DNA from: Planctomycetaceae bacterium
Lineage (GTDB): Bacteria > Planctomycetota > Phycisphaerae > UBA1845 > UTPLA1
Assembly: GCA_006969385.1 (NCBI GenBank)
Contig: CP030884.1
Span: 2,046,001-2,110,000 of the forward strand
Reading direction: 5' to 3'
Length of the DNA: 64,000 bases
In this document: one piece after another, positions 1-8,770 of the stretch
How positions within the stretch are numbered: position 1 is the stretch's first letter
Layout of the letters: the number at the start of each line of letters is the position of its first letter
Program-made: the position numbers and the translations under genes
The notes under the pieces: model-generated
Told to the model about the DNA's origin: nothing
The model's input: only the letters and a program-made list of their open reading frames with translations
Database searches by the model: none

Positions 1-643
1 GCGGTACCAACGATTCGATTTCATCGATAAAGATAACGGCCTTGGGTTCCTGCTTGGCCGCTTTGAAGAGCTTGGTGATGTTTTGTTCGGCTTCGCCCAC
101 CCATTTGCTCAGAATCTGCGCCGGCGAGATCACGAACATCGTCGCTTCGATCTCGTTGGTAATCGCCTTGGCGATCATCGTTTTGCCAGTGCCGGGTGGG
201 CCGTAAAGGAGCAATCCACCGCCGACGCTGATGCCGTATTGCTGGGCCAGCTCCGGATGGCGAAACGGATAGATCATCTTGAGCCGAATTTCGTGCTTTA
301 CATCGTCGAGACCGGCAATGTCGTCGAAGCTGATATCCGGCTTTTCGCGCACGATCCATTCGCGCGCGTCAGTCTTGTTCTCGTCACCCTCGCGCGCGGC
401 GCTGCGACGGTTGGTGCGTTTGTCTTCCTGCCGTTGGTCGCAGCTTTTGGCAAACTCGATCAACTCAGCCGCCATCGCCTTGCGCCGATCGCGCTGCTTG
501 GCGTTTTCGGTTTCGGCGGCAATCTTGATGATCGCATCGGCAGCCTGCATCAAAAAGGGCTTGGCCGAGGCATACTCGCCCTTTTTGTAATGGGCGAGGC
601 CTTTGTCTTTGAGGCGTTCGAAGGTGTTGTAGGATGGGGGCAT
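1..643 (-). CDS. MIT domain - Vps4-like AAA+ ATPase (partial, C-terminus off the left edge)
   Basis: The reading frame is open from an ATG at 643 to the window edge (214 codons). Residues 1-68 form a three-helix, TPR-like region with the pattern of an MIT domain (LKDKGLAHYKKGEYASAKPF, then a second helix and LIEFAKSC). A charged linker (70-100) leads to an AAA+ core: FDDIAGLDDVK (106-116), Walker A GPPGTGKT (148-155), pore loop SKWVGEAE (179-186) and Walker B VIFIDEIE (203-210). The KW pore loop is typical of Vps4 in the meiotic clade of AAA ATPases; katanin and spastin usually have KY. MIT-AAA proteins disassemble ESCRT-III filaments in eukaryotes and archaea. A protein resembling ESCRT-III is encoded on the same strand at 2243-2851, so filament remodelling is the inferred role. 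The sensor, arginine-finger and C-terminal parts are not visible. A generic AAA ATPase with a TPR-like head is the main alternative. Confidence 0.85.
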   Translation of the reverse strand, partial: MPPSYNTFERLKDKGLAHYKKGEYASAKPFLMQAADAIIKIAAETENAKQRDRRKAMAAELIEFAKSCDQRQEDKRTNRRSAAREGDENKTDAREWIVREKPDISFDDIAGLDDVKHEIRLKMIYPFRHPELAQQYGISVGGGLLLYGPPGTGKTMIAKAITNEIEATMFVISPAQILSKWVGEAEQNITKLFKAAKQEPKAVIFIDEIESLVP

Positions 644-691
644 GTTGGTGCTATCTCTCAATCCCGGTACTTCACGCAACGGGCATTCATT

Positions 692-1522
692 CTAAGCCGA
701 GTTATCGAATTCGGCTTCAATATTACCCCATCGCCCAAAACGCTTCACGAAATTCGCGTAGGCATCCGCCCCGTCCATACCGCCTCGTTCAGAATCGGAT
801 GCCGCGTAGGCGAGAAAATCATGTACAGCGTGTAATTGCTCCGGCTCAAGGGCGAGCAAGAAATCGTAGTACTCGCGGCTTAATGGCGATTCCGGTGAAC
901 CCACCCAGAGAATGAACCCATCTGGAATGAGCGAAGGCGGCCCCTTGTCAACACAATAGCGCAGGGCGAATGAAAGGTATGCCGGCAGATAATAGCGAAA
1001 GCCCTCGAAATCCATATACGTCAACGCGATATCCAGGCGCGCGACTATCTCATCGGGAATATCCTGCCAGCGTTTATCGGTGTCTTTTTCTATGGCCGCC
1101 TCTGTCGTTTCGGAATCTTCGTGACCGTCAATCGCTAATGCTTGGTGCAGGGTACGGCCGTTACCACGTTTCACATCGCCAAAAGCCGCTTCGATGCGCT
1201 TGAGCACCTTTTGACTGACTTCTCTGCATTGCTGGTTGATTGTTTTGAAGCCCGCAACGCGGCGGTCGTTCAGCGAGATCGGACGCACTTTGCTGGTGCA
1301 CTTCTCGTCGCAAGCGCCGTGCTGTTGAAATTGTTCTTGCCCAAATCTGAGCTCACCGAGGTAATACTCAAAGCCAAGATCGTCATCATTCCACCAATAC
1401 TTGTAATCGATCCAACCGCAGATCATGCACTGCTGATCCGTGCCGGGTGGTGGCGCGGCGAGCGTATAATAGCCGCAGCATTCGCATGGAAATTGTTGGG
1501 CCGTATTCTCGTTTGAGGGCAT
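692..1522 (-). CDS. CPCC-type zinc-binding domain fused to a DUF6714-like domain
   Basis: A 276-residue cytoplasmic protein. Residues about 10-45 contain FPCECCGYYTL and a second CMICGW pair, the layout of CPCC cysteine-rich zinc-binding domains. The C-terminal half, with ALTYMDFEGFRYYLPAYLSF and a conserved DGFILW stretch, resembles DUF6714, which occurs in small proteins often near toxin or immunity loci. No signal peptide or membrane segment is visible. It lies 48 bp upstream of the MIT-AAA gene on the same strand and could be co-transcribed with it. Family assignment is from motif recognition. The function is unknown; an immunity-like role is only a guess from the families' usual neighbours. 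Confidence 0.75.
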   Translation of the reverse strand: MPSNENTAQQFPCECCGYYTLAAPPPGTDQQCMICGWIDYKYWWNDDDLGFEYYLGELRFGQEQFQQHGACDEKCTSKVRPISLNDRRVAGFKTINQQCREVSQKVLKRIEAAFGDVKRGNGRTLHQALAIDGHEDSETTEAAIEKDTDKRWQDIPDEIVARLDIALTYMDFEGFRYYLPAYLSFALRYCVDKGPPSLIPDGFILWVGSPESPLSREYYDFLLALEPEQLHAVHDFLAYAASDSERGGMDGADAYANFVKRFGRWGNIEAEFDNSA

Positions 1523-1635
1523 CCTCTCTTTCCTTAATGCTCTGGCTTATTGCTGCGACGAATGCGAATCTGATTTGAATCAACGACGATCAGGCAGCCC
1601 TCGGTTTTCTCTAGCAACTCATGATGATGAAATAA

Positions 1636-1917
1636 CTATCGCACCATTTCAAGCACGATGGTGCGCGGAGCACGATGCGGAGCACGAAACACGACGATTC
1701 CGGCATATCGCTCCGGTGGGAATGTTCGAATATCGCCAAAGTCCAAGTCGCGGCTGAGAATACAAAGCTGGTTCGTGTGGGCATATGCGGCAATCGCAAG
1801 ATCGTCCACAGCGCCCATTCCGATATCGCGTACATCGGTCGCTTTAAAACCCGCTTCGCGGACCACCAAATCAGTACCACGTGGCAGGCTTGCGTCGATG
1901 AGAAAGTGCGAAGCCAT
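1636..1917 (-). CDS. DUF5615 PIN-like toxin of a toxin-antitoxin pair
   Basis: A 93-residue protein beginning MASHFLIDASLPRGT, with the conserved pattern of DUF5615 PIN-like proteins: an early Asp in FLIDASLP, VRDIGMGAVDDLAIAAYA, and LSRDLDFGDI in the middle. The acidic residues match those that build the PIN nuclease site, so RNA cleavage is the expected activity. The ATG at 1917 is preferred over a TTG at 1923 that would overlap the antitoxin stop. The protein ends soon after IVVFRAPHRAPR and is slightly short for the family, so the C-terminus may be trimmed. It is paired with the DUF433 gene just upstream. Confidence 0.8.
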   Translation of the reverse strand: MASHFLIDASLPRGTDLVVREAGFKATDVRDIGMGAVDDLAIAAYAHTNQLCILSRDLDFGDIRTFPPERYAGIVVFRAPHRAPRTIVLEMVR

Positions 1918-1919
1918 GC

Positions 1920-2141
1920 TCAAGCAGACAATGAATGGTAGGATTGCTTGCCAATTTCATCGGACGCGAAGGATAGGCAGGCGCGGATGTCCTCCATTGT
2001 AATTTCATAGTCTTTTTGAACCTGATCGAAACTGTCACCACCTGCTAAGGCGCTCAGGATCACGGTGACTGGCGTACGTGTACCTTTAACTATCGGTTTA
2101 CCTTGGCAAATTGCGGGGTCAATTACGATTCTCTCTGACAT
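1920..2141 (-). CDS. DUF433 antitoxin
   Basis: A 73-residue protein with the DUF433 signature ICQGKPIVKGTRTPV followed by a small helical domain (FDQVQKDYEITMEDIRACL). DUF433 proteins carry a degenerate winged-helix fold and are the usual partners of DUF5615 PIN-like toxins. The stop codon sits 2 bp before the ATG of the toxin, so the two are translated as a unit with the antitoxin first. The pair lies between the ESCRT-III-like and MIT-AAA genes, all on one strand. It is probably autoregulated, as usual for such pairs, but no operator was identified. Confidence 0.82.
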   Translation of the reverse strand: MSERIVIDPAICQGKPIVKGTRTPVTVILSALAGGDSFDQVQKDYEITMEDIRACLSFASDEIGKQSYHSLSA

Positions 2142-2242
2142 ATGCGTCTTCCTTCAAATAGCCGATGGCTTAAGCCCCGTCGCGTCGGGAACGACGCGGC
2201 TCTGCGGCGCGCGTTTGACTCACGTCGTTACCGCCGCGCCAC

Positions 2243-2851
2243 CTACTTCCCTTCCTTCTGCGCATCATCCTTCAACGAATTCAACTCGGCCCGCAGCGCG
2301 TCCAGCTCGTCCACATCCTTCGCGTGTTCGGCTTCGCTTTCCGCTTCGATCATCGCGTCGATTTCCTGGTCGGTGATGACTTCGGCGGGCGTGGTCATTA
2401 CGTCGCCCTCGGCGGCGCTTTCGATCGATTCGAGGAACATCGACGTGCGCTCTTCCATGCTTTGGCTTTGGGCCATCGCCTTTTCCCATTCGAGCTGGGT
2501 CTTGGCCAGGTCGGTCGCGCCGAACATGCGGCTGATCTCTTTGGCCATCGTGCCCATCGCCTCGGCGAAATCTGTCGACGCCTCGGCCTGCCGCTTGATG
2601 ATCAGCGCGTTCTTCACCGCCAACAGTTGCCGCTCCAGCATCTTCTTGACAGTCGCCGTTTTCTTGAGCGAGTTGCGGATGAACTGATACTGCGAGTCGT
2701 CGCCGATCTCCTTAGCGCGGCGGGCGTTGCGAATGAACTCGTCGGTGAACTTGTTCTGTTCGGCAATCGATTTCTCGATACGGCGAATGCCCTGGCGAAT
2801 TTTGATATCGCGTTCGATGCGGCGTTCTTCGGCGGATTTAAACAAGCTCAT
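2243..2851 (-). CDS. ESCRT-III-like (CHMP/Snf7-type) helical protein with a C-terminal MIM1-like motif
   Basis: A 202-residue, nearly all-helical protein without signal peptide or membrane segment. The N-terminal half is basic: helix 8-48, a GDD turn at 50-52, then a long helix to about 110. This is the hairpin of ESCRT-III subunits, with LKKTATVKKMLERQLLAVKN in the second arm. Residues 95-146 (FAEAMGTMAKEISRMF, then MEERTSMFLESIES) follow the CHMP1/2-like region in which regularly spaced Met residues precede a short helix. Residues 159-180 are acidic (ITDQEIDAMIEAESEAE). The tail DELDALRAELNSLK (181-194) resembles a MIM1 motif, with Leu183, 186, 190 and 193 and Lys194. In ESCRT systems MIM1 binds the MIT domain of Vps4, and an MIT-AAA gene lies downstream on the same strand. 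PspA/Vipp1, the known bacterial relatives, have a different helix layout. The assignment is by pattern, not by a profile search. Confidence 0.72.
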   Translation of the reverse strand: MSLFKSAEERRIERDIKIRQGIRRIEKSIAEQNKFTDEFIRNARRAKEIGDDSQYQFIRNSLKKTATVKKMLERQLLAVKNALIIKRQAEASTDFAEAMGTMAKEISRMFGATDLAKTQLEWEKAMAQSQSMEERTSMFLESIESAAEGDVMTTPAEVITDQEIDAMIEAESEAEHAKDVDELDALRAELNSLKDDAQKEGK

Positions 2852-3200: not shown

Positions 3201-3392
3201 CTATTCCTCCGGAATCACTACCCAACAAATAATATAAACCAGCAGCCCCGGAAAACCCGTCGAGAGTATCGAGACCAGAACATAAAGGATACGCCCCAAC
3301 GTCGGGTCGATGCCCAAATAATCGGATAAGCCGGCCACCACACCGCCGAACATACGGTTGGTGCGCGACCGTCGAAGTACCTTTGTCGACAT
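3201..3392 (-). CDS. PspC-domain membrane protein
   Basis: A 63-residue protein that is essentially only a PspC domain: RRSRTNRMFGGVVAGLSDYL, then DPTLGRILYVLVSIL, one membrane segment and the terminal CWVVIPEE. Full PspC proteins of the phage-shock system are longer and sense membrane stress together with PspB and the ESCRT-III family member PspA. The ATG at 3392 is chosen because GGAGG lies seven bases before it. A TTG at 3398 would leave no room. It starts 3 bp after the zinc-ribbon gene stops and is surely co-transcribed with it. An ESCRT-III-like gene downstream makes a membrane-stress role plausible. Confidence 0.85.
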   Translation of the reverse strand: MSTKVLRRSRTNRMFGGVVAGLSDYLGIDPTLGRILYVLVSILSTGFPGLLVYIICWVVIPEE

Positions 3393-3394
3393 AT

Positions 3395-4444
3395 TCAATC
3401 CTCCGCTAACATTCGCCGCTCGTACGGCGGGTCGTCGTCTTGATCTTCCTCATCAAACTCATCGCTTTCGGCGGTGGCGCGATCATCGTCCGACTCCGCT
3501 TCCGCTTTGACCAATGGCGTATCGTCATTGCCTTCGCTATTTGGTTCTTGGTCGTTTTCGATTTTCTCGACGGCATCCTTCGGTTCCGGTGTCGCCTCTA
3601 ACGTCGCCTTGTCAACCACTTTGTCTTCAGGCTCTGCGACCGACTCCGATTCAACTGTGTTCTCCGCTTCGTCTTTCACAATCTCGTCGTCGCGTTCGAT
3701 CGCGATCGGCGCGTTAAGGCCGTCGTCGCTTACTACGTCCGCGCCTATCTCGACATCAACGGTTTCTTCGACGCTTTCGCCAGCCACATCCGCATCGATC
3801 TCGACCGGTCCAACCTTCTCATCATCGCGTTCCACCGCAACCGGCTCGTCGTCGGCATCGCGCGTTTCGTCGATCTCTACCAATGGTGGTGGTCGCAATA
3901 CATCCCCTTCGGGTGCCGGAACCAAACCATCCGGCGTGATCAACGGCGCGTCTTCGTACATCATGCCGCCGGGTTGCAGCACGTCGCTGCGCTGCGCCGT
4001 GCGATCGCGATCCATCGATCCGCCGTCGCCTGCCAACCGATGACCGCAGCGACCGCAGAAGTATGAGCCGGGGTTCGGCACGCCGTTGGCGCAGCGCGGG
4101 CACACGGGCGGGCAAATATTTTCGTACACGCGCTCGTCGTGCAGAAACGCCTGCAAGTCATAGCCGATCAACGGGCTATTCTGGTGGGCGCTGGGTTTGA
4201 TCACCACCTTGGTGCCGCGCCACTTCTTCTTCACTTCGATATCGATGTACGGCGTCGGCTCCTCCACCAACGACGACCAGAAGCCCTTGGGTTTGTTGGC
4301 ATCCTCGTTATTGAGCTGCGGCGCTTCGACCCGTACGTCTTCCAGATACCAAGGGCGCGACAAGCGATACGAACGCCGCGCCACAAACTGTGTGATGGCA
4401 TCATCGACGTCGTTTCGTTCACGGTAGATCATCACTTCGAGCAT
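3395..4444 (-). CDS. Zinc-ribbon protein with long acidic C-terminal tail
   Basis: About 349 residues from the ATG at 4444. The first 120 residues are an unrecognised globular domain (MLEVMIYRERNDVDDAITQF, later YIDIEVKKKWRGTKVVIKPS). A zinc ribbon follows with CPRC and, 14 residues on, CGRCGH. The remaining 190 residues are low complexity and strongly acidic (repeated VEIDAD, VERDDE and EPEDK stretches) and probably disordered. There is no signal peptide or membrane segment, so it is likely cytoplasmic and may bind membrane proteins or basic partners through its tail. A longer upstream in-frame start (4567) would add a residue run unlike the rest and is not favoured. It is coupled to the PspC gene. 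Function unknown. Confidence 0.75.
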   Translation of the reverse strand: MLEVMIYRERNDVDDAITQFVARRSYRLSRPWYLEDVRVEAPQLNNEDANKPKGFWSSLVEEPTPYIDIEVKKKWRGTKVVIKPSAHQNSPLIGYDLQAFLHDERVYENICPPVCPRCANGVPNPGSYFCGRCGHRLAGDGGSMDRDRTAQRSDVLQPGGMMYEDAPLITPDGLVPAPEGDVLRPPPLVEIDETRDADDEPVAVERDDEKVGPVEIDADVAGESVEETVDVEIGADVVSDDGLNAPIAIERDDEIVKDEAENTVESESVAEPEDKVVDKATLEATPEPKDAVEKIENDQEPNSEGNDDTPLVKAEAESDDDRATAESDEFDEEDQDDDPPYERRMLAED

Positions 4445-4606
4445 ATATTGGCATTGTAGCGGAAGATATTTGCCGCTGGCAGCGCGATAAAACCGGCTCA
4501 AATTTATAACTGACACGCCAATTGCAAGCTGCAAGCACCCACCCGACGAACGCCGACACCGGGCCACTGCCCGAGATCGACGGCTTGCGATACACTTCGC
4601 CCCATC

Positions 4607-5611
4607 ATGAGGGCGCGCAAACGTTTATTCATTGCCTTGCTGGTGCTACTCGGCGTCAATTTCGTCGGGGCCGTCGGCTATTACTTCCTCGAATATGATC
4701 GCATCAGTTTCGGCGACGCCCTCTTTATGACCGTCATCACCGTCTCGACGGTCGGCTATCAGATGGAATGGGATTTGAGCCCGATAGCCAAGCTTTGGAG
4801 CGTGGTCATCATTCTATTCGGCGTGTCGATCGTATCGCTGGCCATCGCATCGCTGCAGGCTATGATTGTCGGCGGTGAATTTCGCAGCGTGTTGGGACGG
4901 CAAAAGTTGAAAGACAAGATAGCCAAATTGAACGACCACTTCATCATCTGCGGCTTCGGGCGCATGGGCGAACACATCGCTATCAATCTGGTCGCCAAAG
5001 GCAAGACCGTCGTCGTGATCGAGCACGACCCGGAGCGAACGCAACTGGCGGCCGAGCGCGGTATCAACTACGTCTTAGGAAATGCCAGCGATGAAGAAAC
5101 GCTGGAGGAAGCGGGCATTCATCAGGCCGCCGCGCTGGTCAGCGCCCTGCGCGGTGACGCGGATAACGTGTTCACCACGCTCACGGCCCACGGCATGCGC
5201 GAAGATTTGCCGATCATCGCGCGCTGCGAAGATATCGATACCGAACGCAAACTGGTACGCGCGGGTGCCAGCCGCGTGATTTGCCCACAGTCGATCGGCG
5301 CGTCGCGTATCGTCAATCTGTTGGCGCGGCCGGCGGTGGCCAAACTGGTCGACATCACGATGGATGCGACGGAATGGGAGATGGAAGAAATCCTGGTGCC
5401 GGCGGGTTCGCCGTTGGCGGGTAAGAGCCTGCGCGAACTCGATCTGCGTGCCCGCGCCAACACCATGATCGTGGCCATTCACGAGGCCGGCGGCAACAGT
5501 GTCGTGAATCCGCCGCCGGATCGCGTGGTTAACGCGGACGATGTGTTGGTCGCCATCGGCCCGGCCGGGTCGGTGCGCGACTTGGCCAGCAAGGCAATGC
5601 GCGACGGCTGA
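4607..5611 (+). CDS. Two-TM potassium channel with RCK (TrkA-N/TrkA-C) domain
   Basis: A 334-residue integral membrane protein. The first membrane helix (LFIALLVLLGVNFVGAVGYY), a pore helix, the selectivity filter VSTVGYQ and a second helix make an Ion_trans_2 pore. Residues 110-230 form a Rossmann-type RCK/TrkA-N domain (FIICGFGRMGEHIAINL, then VVVIEHDPER). Residues 250-334 form a TrkA-C domain (EILVPAGSPLAGKSLRELDL). The layout matches MthK/Kch-like channels, which let K+ pass when ligand binds the RCK ring. It is transcribed divergently from the zinc-ribbon/PspC operon, across 162 bp that may hold both promoters. Confidence 0.9.
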   Translation: MRARKRLFIALLVLLGVNFVGAVGYYFLEYDRISFGDALFMTVITVSTVGYQMEWDLSPIAKLWSVVIILFGVSIVSLAIASLQAMIVGGEFRSVLGRQKLKDKIAKLNDHFIICGFGRMGEHIAINLVAKGKTVVVIEHDPERTQLAAERGINYVLGNASDEETLEEAGIHQAAALVSALRGDADNVFTTLTAHGMREDLPIIARCEDIDTERKLVRAGASRVICPQSIGASRIVNLLARPAVAKLVDITMDATEWEMEEILVPAGSPLAGKSLRELDLRARANTMIVAIHEAGGNSVVNPPPDRVVNADDVLVAIGPAGSVRDLASKAMRDG

Positions 5612-7024: not shown

Positions 7025-8770
7025 ATGAGCGAACAGCCATCCATTGAAACGTTGTCGCGCGACCCCAGCCTGGTCGCCTGCATCATCCGGCCCGACGAGG
7101 TCTTTTCCTTCATGACGCGGCACGTCGTGCTGCCCAAGGATTCCGCCGCGCTGGTCACCAAAGATGACGGTCGCTGCGACGTTGTGACCGGCGGTGATCC
7201 GGTCCATGCCGACGGTACGTCGGAAATCGTCTTCGCGCGGTTGGCCGAGTTTGCCCTGCAATACAACTTCGCCGGCTTCCCATCCAAAGACAAATACAAA
7301 TTCGACGGCGCCACCGCCCTGACGGTTAGCCCCATCGGCGACCGTATTGAGCTGCAAGCGCTGCGCGGTTCGCTGCTTAGCAACGCGACGGCATTTCGCA
7401 AGAACGAGTTGCGCAGCCATTGCCAGGAGGCGGTGCAGATCGCGTTGAGCAATTTCATCAGCGAGCGCACGGCGGAAGAATTGGTGCGACCGGCCTGTTG
7501 GGATGAATTCGACGGCGTGTTGGCCGAGACGTTTAAGCGGATTGGCTTCGAGTCGGGTTTGGCCTTGGGGCCGAACCCGCGACTCACGCTCAAGTCGTCG
7601 CATTACGAAAGTTCGCAAGCCGAAGCCCGCGCGCGCGAGATTCGCGAACAGCGCCAGGCCGAGGAACAGCGCCGCAAGCAAGAGGCGCAAGCCGCGCGCG
7701 AGGCGCAGCTCGATTCCATCGGCAACATGATGGAACGCGTCAAGCAGATGTCCGACAGCGGTGGGGCGGTCGATGTCGGCGAGTTGGTGCGCGCCTTCGA
7801 TGCCGAGCAGCGCGGCACGCTCTACGAAGGACTGCTTGCCGGCGAGAAAGGCATGCAGCCGGTCGATAAGGTACTGGTCGTATCGGGCACGTCGCTGCTG
7901 TGGTTCGGCATGGATAACCCGCACGAGAATTATCGCAAGCAACGACTGACCGACGAAGCGACGGGGCCGTTGCGCTCGGTGCGTGTGATCGAAGATGGCC
8001 CGCGGCGCTTGGTATTGGTCGGCGCGCGCAACGGCGTGCACGTGATCGATGCCGATAGCGGCGACCATCTCACGACGTGTGTGGTGAAGGGCAAGAAAGA
8101 TGTAAAGGGCGGCTTTAACGCCACGGCCATGATCGGCACAGACATCTTCGCGTCGCATTCCGAACTCGGCCTGATGAAATGGGCCAACGACAATCCCAAG
8201 CGCGCGATCCCCTGTTTGACCGACCTGACCGAAGGCAGCCATGCGGTGCGCGACGTGCAATCGGAATTCGGTCGTCGCCTATGGTTGGCCATCGACCATC
8301 TCGTCGTCGCGTGGCAGCCGGAAGACGACCTATCGCAATCGGCCATCGAAGCGCCTGCCGAAATTTCGAGTTTATGCGTCGCCGATGGTTACGTGATCGC
8401 GGGGCTCAAGACGGGCATGATCCTGCGCTGGGTTGCGGGGGCGTCCGATGAATACGAAGTCTTGCGCGAGCGCGATCATCGCACGGTGCGGTCGGTGAAG
8501 TACCTCAGCGGCGGCGGCATACCGCGCGTGCTGGTGGGGGACGGTCGGCAGTTCCTCGATTTGATGGTGATCGGGGATGCCTACCACGGTCAGTATCGCG
8601 CGCTGCACGATTTGCGTTGGGGCTTCGCCAAGGGCGATCTGGTGGTGGGCGTGAATGACGGGCGCGACACGATGATCGTTTGGGATAAAAACAAACCGCA
8701 ACATCCGAAGTTCCACGTGCCGGTGCGACGGATGTTGGGCAGGTCGATTCAGGATGTGGCGCTGCTGTGA
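7025..8770 (+). CDS. Large protein with SPFH-like head, coiled coil and beta-propeller-like tail
   Basis: A 581-residue protein not confidently assigned to a family. Residues 1-195 show alternating strands and helices, with NELRSHCQEAVQIALSNFI and FKRIGFESGLAL before a helical stretch, which is how the end of a band-7/SPFH-like domain looks. Residues 200-240 are a charged coiled coil (EARAREIREQRQAEEQRRKQ). After a helical linker, residues 290-581 are strand-rich with repeated units (LVLVGARNGVHVIDADSG, VADGYVIAGLKTGMILRW, LVVGVNDGRDTMIVWD), as in WD40-like beta propellers. There is no signal peptide or clear membrane helix. The domain order suggests a cytoplasmic or membrane-surface scaffold. 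It stands alone on the plus strand. Confidence 0.75.
   Translation: MSEQPSIETLSRDPSLVACIIRPDEVFSFMTRHVVLPKDSAALVTKDDGRCDVVTGGDPVHADGTSEIVFARLAEFALQYNFAGFPSKDKYKFDGATALTVSPIGDRIELQALRGSLLSNATAFRKNELRSHCQEAVQIALSNFISERTAEELVRPACWDEFDGVLAETFKRIGFESGLALGPNPRLTLKSSHYESSQAEARAREIREQRQAEEQRRKQEAQAAREAQLDSIGNMMERVKQMSDSGGAVDVGELVRAFDAEQRGTLYEGLLAGEKGMQPVDKVLVVSGTSLLWFGMDNPHENYRKQRLTDEATGPLRSVRVIEDGPRRLVLVGARNGVHVIDADSGDHLTTCVVKGKKDVKGGFNATAMIGTDIFASHSELGLMKWANDNPKRAIPCLTDLTEGSHAVRDVQSEFGRRLWLAIDHLVVAWQPEDDLSQSAIEAPAEISSLCVADGYVIAGLKTGMILRWVAGASDEYEVLRERDHRTVRSVKYLSGGGIPRVLVGDGRQFLDLMVIGDAYHGQYRALHDLRWGFAKGDLVVGVNDGRDTMIVWDKNKPQHPKFHVPVRRMLGRSIQDVALL

What the first reader, a model, noticed from the sequence alone, without database searches (positions are those of the whole stretch)
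1..2851. Candidate bacterial ESCRT-III/Vps4 module
A 202-residue helical protein with the charge layout, hairpin and Met-rich segment of CHMP-type ESCRT-III lies on the same strand as an MIT-domain AAA+ ATPase with a Vps4-like KWVG pore loop. Known bacterial ESCRT-III relatives (PspA, Vipp1/IM30) do not use a Vps4/MIT partner; such pairs are known from eukaryotes and archaea. A true pair in a planctomycete would bear on their unusual internal membranes and on the history of the ESCRT machine.
Basis: partly seen in the sequence, partly recalled or inferred. Interest (0 to 1): 0.95.

Follow-up and report, generated by a model that had tools for sequence, protein, structure and literature searches.

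The report
Bacterial ESCRT-III/Vps4 gene cluster
This planctomycete and most sampled relatives of its order share a conserved gene cluster whose proteins resemble the ESCRT-III/Vps4 machine, which is predicted to bend or cut membranes here as it does in archaea and eukaryotes; a 2024 survey placed such systems only in those two domains.

Summary
The 202-aa protein (E3A) is found in 35 of 41 genomes of its order and the ATPase in 34 of the same 41; six lack both. E3A's predicted fold has the ESCRT-III helix layout; Foldseek's first 18 PDB rows are all ESCRT-III superfamily (best CHMP2A, E 3.7e-3). In a wider orthologue set Pfam Snf7 leads (22 of 33, best E 2.7e-6). The ATPase has one AAA domain, Vps4_C above Pfam's cut-off, an invariant KWVG pore loop and an N-terminus matching archaeal CdvC's MIT region (hhalign 89.5%, reversed control 1.0%). 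Left of the window lie two more ESCRT-III-like genes (one fused to a winged helix) and a Ser/Thr kinase; in relatives an SPFH/propeller gene follows the ATPase, and its homologue is at window 7025-8770. FtsZ was found in none of 96 genomes searched. Most likely a bacterial ESCRT-III/Vps4 membrane-remodelling machine; the cellular process is unproven. Weak points: the window's own E3A has no significant database hit, E3B and E3C are less certain, the ATPase's kinship is unresolved, and there is no experiment.

The parts
2243..2851 (-). E3A: 202-aa ESCRT-III-like protein, best structural match CHMP2A; conserved N-terminal M-x-L-F-K-S and a conserved C-terminal helix after a variable linker
1..643 (-). 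N-terminal part of the Vps4-like ATPase (MIT-like domain, Walker A, KWVG pore loop, Walker B); the C-terminal part with Vps4_C lies left of the window (L002 9531-10643)
3201..3398 (-). PspC-domain small protein; a homologue lies within 2.5 kb upstream of E3A in 36 of 72 named loci that reach far enough
   Evidence: Pfam PspC E 6.6e-23
3395..4567 (-). Zinc-ribbon-like, acidic-tailed protein adjoining pspC; homologues beside E3A in 7 of 80 named loci, membership in the module uncertain
   Evidence: zinc-ribbon Pfam hits below cut-off
7025..8770 (+). Homologue of the SPFH (Band 7) plus beta-propeller protein that in relatives follows the ATPase gene (gap under 500 bp in 48 of 50 loci holding both); here it sits apart, on the other strand
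   Evidence: alignment A8: Band_7 in 8 of 24, best 2.3e-6, not the window's copy; profile to designed propeller Tako8 E 2.7e-18 and WD40 protein FBXW7 E 5.4e-7

Best explanation
[quoted passage not shown] Shown by sequence and prediction: E3A has the ESCRT-III helix layout and its wider family matches Snf7; E3B is predicted as an N-terminal domain plus winged helix plus ESCRT-III-like hairpin (an order that recalls CHMP7; recalled); E3C is related to E3B's C-terminal part; the ATPase has MIT-like, single-AAA and Vps4_C parts; E3A and the ATPase occur and vanish together; and the set is mostly co-linear with a Ser/Thr kinase and an SPFH/propeller protein. Inferred: E3B nucleates, E3C extends, and E3A caps the filament and offers its conserved C-terminal helix to the MIT-like domain; the ATPase ring threads E3A through its KWVG loops; the SPFH/propeller protein gives a membrane platform and the kinase gives control. 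I take the most likely job to be inner-membrane remodelling or scission at SPFH-marked sites, with division as the main rival.
For: Presence and absence: E3A 35 of 41, ATPase 34 of 41, both absent in the same six; the two stay together even on different contigs (G007 C5/C8, G019 C1/C2, G038 C39/C57). Synteny in named loci that reach far enough: E3C 65 of 67, E3B 58 of 60, kinase 54 of 56, ATPase 46 of 57, on E3A's strand. Fold and profile of E3A. E3C to E3B hhalign 93.6%, 96.2% on a wider set. Four ESCRT-III-like families score 18-75% against fungal Vps2, reversed Vps2 0.3-0.7%. ATPase: Vps4_C 24.4 bits over a 21.3 cut-off, in 27 of 29 homologues at E<=0.1; the CdvC model aligns from residue 20 to 366, other listed models from 86 or later; MIT region 89.5%. 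Phylum sample: E3A in 56 of 392 genomes, 34 of them with the ATPase at 300 bits or more, 5 genomes with the ATPase alone.
Confidence: 0.82

Rival explanations
1. The same machine, but its main job is cell division: ESCRT-III rings with the Vps4-like ATPase would do cytokinesis, as Cdv does in Sulfolobus, in bacteria that lack FtsZ.
For: FtsZ not found in 41 of 41 genomes of the order or in 55 of 55 other E3A genomes, control 13 of 14. PMC6952346 (passages read) says Phycisphaerae divide by a fission-like mode without FtsZ and asks which protein drives it. NCBIfam's CdvC model is first for the window's ATPase.
Against: Six order members lack both E3A and the ATPase and also FtsZ, and 336 of 392 phylum genomes have no E3A match, so it cannot be the general FtsZ substitute. 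SPFH, kinase and PspC neighbours fit membrane maintenance as well.
Confidence: 0.3
2. A PspA-like envelope-stress system in which the ESCRT-III-like proteins replace PspA and work with PspC.
For: PspC lies upstream of E3A in 36 of 72 loci. The own genome has no PspA_IM30 match over the cut-off; 34 of 41 genomes of the order have none at E<=1e-5.
Against: PspA co-occurs with E3A in 24 of 56 phylum genomes, more often than in the rest (77 of 336), and in 5 of 35 E3A-positive order members, so the two are not alternatives. PF04012 is not among the three families listed for the window's E3A at E<=10, nor in the first 25 listed. Half of the loci have no PspC.
Confidence: 0.2
3. Unrelated coiled-coil proteins beside an ordinary AAA unfoldase: the ESCRT-III likeness is a generic helical hairpin and the ATPase is a Cdc48-like chaperone that disassembles them.
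For: E-values for the window protein are not significant; E3B's best VIA rows are unrelated coiled coils; the ATPase's AAA part scores close to Cdc48.
Against: Snf7 is the top family in the wider orthologue set, 22 of 33, the next 2; the first 18 Foldseek rows of E3A are ESCRT-III superfamily; Vps4_C in 27 of 29; MIT match with a clean reversed control.
Confidence: 0.13

Closest known systems
Archaeal Cdv/ESCRT systems (CdvB/CdvC of Sulfolobus; the wider archaeal systems of Makarova 2024, PMC10936438, abstract and passages read)
   Same: ESCRT-III-like genes next to a single-AAA MIT ATPase; winged-helix partner; an ESCRT-III gene upstream of the ATPase
   Different: Host is a bacterium; the winged helix is N-terminal to the ESCRT-III-like part (that paper describes C-terminal fusion in many TACK archaea); kinase, PspC and SPFH/propeller neighbours; CdvA was not searched for
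Eukaryotic ESCRT-III/Vps4 (CHMP2/Vps2, CHMP7, VPS4)
   Same: E3A's best structural match is CHMP2A; E3B's winged helix plus ESCRT-III order recalls CHMP7 (recalled); MIT-AAA-Vps4_C order
   Different: Identity 14-17% to CHMP2A-CHMP3 chains in the fold match; ESCRT-0/I not searched for; ATPase kinship unresolved and no eukaryotic Vps4 in the tree
Bacterial PspA/Vipp1 (IM30)
   Same: ESCRT-III superfamily hairpin fold; PspC neighbour in half of the loci; SPFH partner known for some PspA loci (PMC10936438 passage)
   Different: E3A's wider family matches Snf7, and PF04012 is not listed for the window protein; a Vps4-like partner; PspA coexists in 24 of 56 E3A genomes
Bacterial Vps4-like and Snf7/AAA associations of Ravi et al. 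2024 (PMC11237479, passages read)
   Same: They report Vps4-like ATPases in some bacteria and some bacterial PspA/Snf7 genes near AAA+ ATPases
   Different: In their bacterial Vps4 cases snf7 is displaced by an unrelated gene; 'planctomycet' does not occur in the main text; no cluster of three ESCRT-III-like genes with an MIT ATPase is in the passages that I read

Membership tests
ESCRT-III (Snf7/CHMP/CdvB) for E3A | Helical hairpin alpha1-alpha2/3 followed by alpha4 and a C-terminal alpha5 | tested here: met
   AF2 helices 7-49, 52-110, 115-153, 161-200, pLDDT 73.9; Foldseek ranks 1-18 all ESCRT-III superfamily, best E 3.7e-3, none under 0.001
ESCRT-III (Snf7/CHMP/CdvB) for E3A | Sequence homology to the Snf7 family | tested here: met
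   Wider set A7: 22 of 33 at E<=1, best 2.7e-6, next family 2. Order-level set: 7 of 58, best 0.0011. The window's own member is not significant (E 7.2; no family at E<=1)
ESCRT-III (Snf7/CHMP/CdvB) for E3A | Basic core, acidic C-terminal tail | tested here: met
   +9, -6, -11 along the protein
ESCRT-III (Snf7/CHMP/CdvB) for E3A | MIT-interacting motif in the tail | tested here: inconclusive
   Conserved terminal helix; my loose MIM1-like pattern in 57 of 58 order members and 9 of 33 of the wider set; motif recalled
ESCRT-III (Snf7/CHMP/CdvB) for E3A | Filament formation and membrane remodelling | not testable with these tools
   needs protein
ESCRT-III for E3B and E3C | Hairpin fold and homology | tested here: inconclusive
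   E3B model (of the L052 copy) hairpin 287-381 plus helices 388-412, 425-435; ESCRT-III rows present but below coiled coils; Snf7 6 of 59, best 0.011, behind two other families; E3C no Snf7 among the first 25 families, no model made, but homologous to E3B
Vps4-type ATPase | Single AAA domain with Vps4_C helix | tested here: met
   24.4 bits over 21.3 cut-off; 27 of 29 at E<=0.1
Vps4-type ATPase | N-terminal MIT domain | tested here: met
   hhalign to the CdvC N-terminus 89.5%, E 2e-6, reversed 1.0%; CdvC model aligned from residue 20. Pfam MIT itself not hit
Vps4-type ATPase | KW-x-G pore loop | tested here: met
   K180 W181 V182 G183 invariant in 29 of 29
Vps4-type ATPase | Groups with known Vps4 in a tree | tested here: inconclusive
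   own group; link to CdvC 81/7; no eukaryotic Vps4 or katanin included
CdvC equivalog (NCBIfam NF041006) | Score over the curated cut-off | tested here: not met
   232 bits against 650: not filed as a CdvC equivalog
PspA/IM30 | PF04012 match of E3A | tested here: not met
   not among the three families listed at E<=10

The most novel reading that the evidence does not exclude
Planctomycetota own a complete ESCRT-III/Vps4 system, spread over many families of the phylum, in which a winged-helix nucleator, two further ESCRT-III types and one or two MIT ATPases work on SPFH/propeller platforms to do FtsZ-free membrane scission, cytokinesis included; the ESCRT machine is then not an archaeo-eukaryotic possession alone.
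Probability: 0.3. Interest if true: 0.97.

Novelty: new variant of a known kind. Interest (0 to 1): 0.92.

Why it matters
[quoted passage not shown] A syntenic bacterial system in a phylum described as lacking FtsZ gives a testable candidate for two open questions: what remodels or divides membranes in these planctomycetes, and whether the ESCRT machine predates the bacteria/archaea split or crossed it.

Tried and rejected
PspA replacement: rejected as a general rule, because PspA coexists with E3A in 24 of 56 phylum genomes. General FtsZ substitute: rejected, because FtsZ-less relatives without the module exist. Anammox link: I searched the hydrazine-synthase family PF18582 in 56 genomes to ask whether family f37 is anammox; 10 of 56 match, some with up to 24 copies, so the model told nothing. 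Archaeal contamination: rejected; the window genome is one 5.48-Mb contig, G004 and G015 are single contigs, and the cluster recurs in scores of genomes. Sequence search of the PDB with E3A, E3C and E3B profiles listed no ESCRT-III chain. hhalign with the order-only alignments failed for E3A, and a wider set did not link E3A to E3B or E3C either. The ATPase tree did not settle its origin. E3B's first 190 residues got no match that I could use; this excludes nothing.
Full report
Check of the finding. The 202-aa ORF at 2243-2851 (-) and the ATPase from 643 (-) off the left edge are as described. The window lies at 2046001-2110000 of a single-contig genome of 5,475,373 bases, and the missing part was fetched (L002): the ATPase is 371 aa from the ATG at window 643.

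More of the machine lies left of the window. L002 holds, on the same strand, a Ser/Thr kinase with zinc ribbons (Pkinase E 1.7e-40), E3B (472 aa) and E3C (222 aa in the longest reading; the start conserved in relatives gives about 199). I opened larger loci of 20 of the 34 relatives that have E3A: kinase - E3B - E3C - E3A stand in this order on one strand in 20 of 20, followed by the ATPase in 17; the three others (L034, L042, L050 of G007, G019, G038) carry it on another contig. In 80 loci of named records tblastn found E3A 80, E3C 77, E3B 74, kinase 70, ATPase 57, a small hydrophobic protein (by eye) 55, PspC 39 (contig ends cut many). Counting only loci that reach far enough: E3C 65 of 67 within 4.5 kb, E3B 58 of 60 within 6 kb, kinase 54 of 56 within 7 kb, ATPase 46 of 57 within 4.5 kb, SPFH/propeller 39 of 53 within 6 kb, PspC 36 of 72 within 2.5 kb, on E3A's strand; in 50 loci that hold both, ATPase and SPFH/propeller genes lie within 500 bp in 48. 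In the window's genome and in its close kin G001 (same contig as L052) the two halves are exchanged, while G002 of the same genus (L053) has the common order. In the window genome the SPFH/propeller gene stands at 7025-8770 on the other strand.

Distribution. E3A is in 35 of 41 genomes of the order at 65-100% identity, the ATPase at E<=1e-90 in 34 of the same 41: 34 both, six neither, one (G002, 85% complete, E3A near a contig end) E3A only. In a phylum sample E3A is in 56 of 392 genomes (15 of 217 of high quality); apart from the own genome none of these is of the same class. With the ATPase at 300 bits or more in 39 genomes (my count; the next score is 264.5): both 34, E3A only 22, ATPase only 5, neither 331 (Fisher p 8e-29, not corrected for kinship). 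Sixteen of the 22 belong to one family, and 7 of 7 of its loci that I opened carry another AAA protein before E3A; [quoted passage not shown] Some other families have both ATPases and split E3B into two genes.

E3B and E3C. The E3B model, made for the L052 copy (pLDDT 84.6), has an alpha/beta part 1-190, a winged helix about 192-258, then hairpin 287-381 and helices 388-412, 425-435. Foldseek finds winged helices first, human ESCRT-II at ranks 12 and 43, Asgard ESCRT-IIIB at 23, CdvB2 at 36. VIA ranks coiled coils above ESCRT-III rows, so E3B's membership is inconclusive by fold alone. E3C, not modelled, matches E3B's C-terminal part (93.6%; 96.2%). Against fungal Vps2 profiles E3A, E3B, E3C and a fourth family (E3D, 7 sequences of other families) score 18, 47, 32 and 75%, reversed Vps2 0.3-0.7%; E3A itself scores 0.5-4% against E3B, E3C and E3D.

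ATPase. Vps4_C passes Pfam's cut-off (24.4 over 21.3) and is found in 27 of 29 homologues. For the window's ATPase NCBIfam puts CdvC first at 232 bits, below its equivalog cut-off of 650 and close to CDC48 at 225; of three other ATPases of this type CDC48 is first in two and level in one. In the window's protein the CdvC alignment starts at residue 20, all other listed ones at 86 or later. The N-terminal domain matches the CdvC N-terminus at 89.5% (reversed 1.0%, other helical families at most 0.4%), while Pfam's MIT model is not among the hits and TPR models give weak ones. In a tree of 82 AAA domains 39 of 41 rows that I had labelled as this type, plus three from E3A-negative genomes, form one group (95/90); the other two fall with the second AAA type; the relation to archaeal CdvC is unresolved (81/7).

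SPFH/propeller protein. In an alignment of 24, Band_7 hits 8 (best 2.3e-6; not the window's copy), and the profile finds the designed propeller Tako8 at E 2.7e-18 and WD40 protein FBXW7 at 5.4e-7. SPFH links to ESCRT and PspA systems are described in PMC10936438 (passages).

Which process. FtsZ was found in 0 of 41 genomes of the order and 0 of 55 other E3A genomes, with 13 of 14 controls positive. PMC6952346 (passages) states that Phycisphaerae divide fission-like without FtsZ and asks for the driver. But six FtsZ-less order members lack the module. PspA has no match over the cut-off in the own genome yet coexists with E3A elsewhere (24 of 56). I therefore commit to membrane remodelling or scission as the shared activity, with division as a serious rival.

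What is in print. [quoted passage not shown] PMC11237479 (passages) reports bacterial Vps4-like genes without snf7 and some bacterial PspA/Snf7 genes near AAA+ ATPases. My ten searches of open PubMed Central papers listed no title or abstract on an ESCRT-III/Vps4 system in planctomycetes; bioRxiv and most subscription papers are not held.

Verdict. A real, conserved bacterial ESCRT-III/Vps4-like cluster with E3A and the ATPase inherited together, likely functional as such, not yet shown by experiment.

Noticed in passing
window 1636-2141 (-): Two small overlapping genes (95 and 73 aa) that look like a PIN-like toxin and DUF433-type antitoxin pair (names recalled, not tested), between E3A and the ATPase; in same-genus L052 these two genes are only 113 bp apart.
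   Followed up: no
window 692-1522 (-): DUF6714 plus Cys-rich CPCC protein directly upstream of the ATPase; tblastn found it in none of the other relatives' loci L003-L051 searched.
   Followed up: partly
L010 1327-1455 (-): A separate 43-residue stretch 72% identical to the ATPase's MIT-like region, between E3A and the full ATPase gene; perhaps a duplicated domain.
   Followed up: no
L152-L171, upstream of E3A: A second AAA ATPase (KYFG pore, MIT-like N-terminus) and a fourth ESCRT-III-like family (about 205 aa) in other planctomycete families.
   Followed up: partly
one search hits P0021, P0061, P0113, P0116: E3A homologues are named 'cysteinyl-tRNA synthetase' by one source, a likely misannotation; other named hits are hypothetical proteins.
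   Followed up: no
L084 (JANQQE010000024.1): Record titled Alphaproteobacteria agrees with planctomycete genome G023 in contig length and place; likely mislabelled.
   Followed up: no
G317, G354, G360: PF18582 (hydrazine synthase alpha domain) in 24, 7 and 23 copies per genome, so this Pfam model looks unsafe as an anammox marker in planctomycetes.
   Followed up: no
window 4607-5611 (+): Looks like a potassium channel with a TrkA-type NAD domain (recalled, not tested).
   Followed up: no
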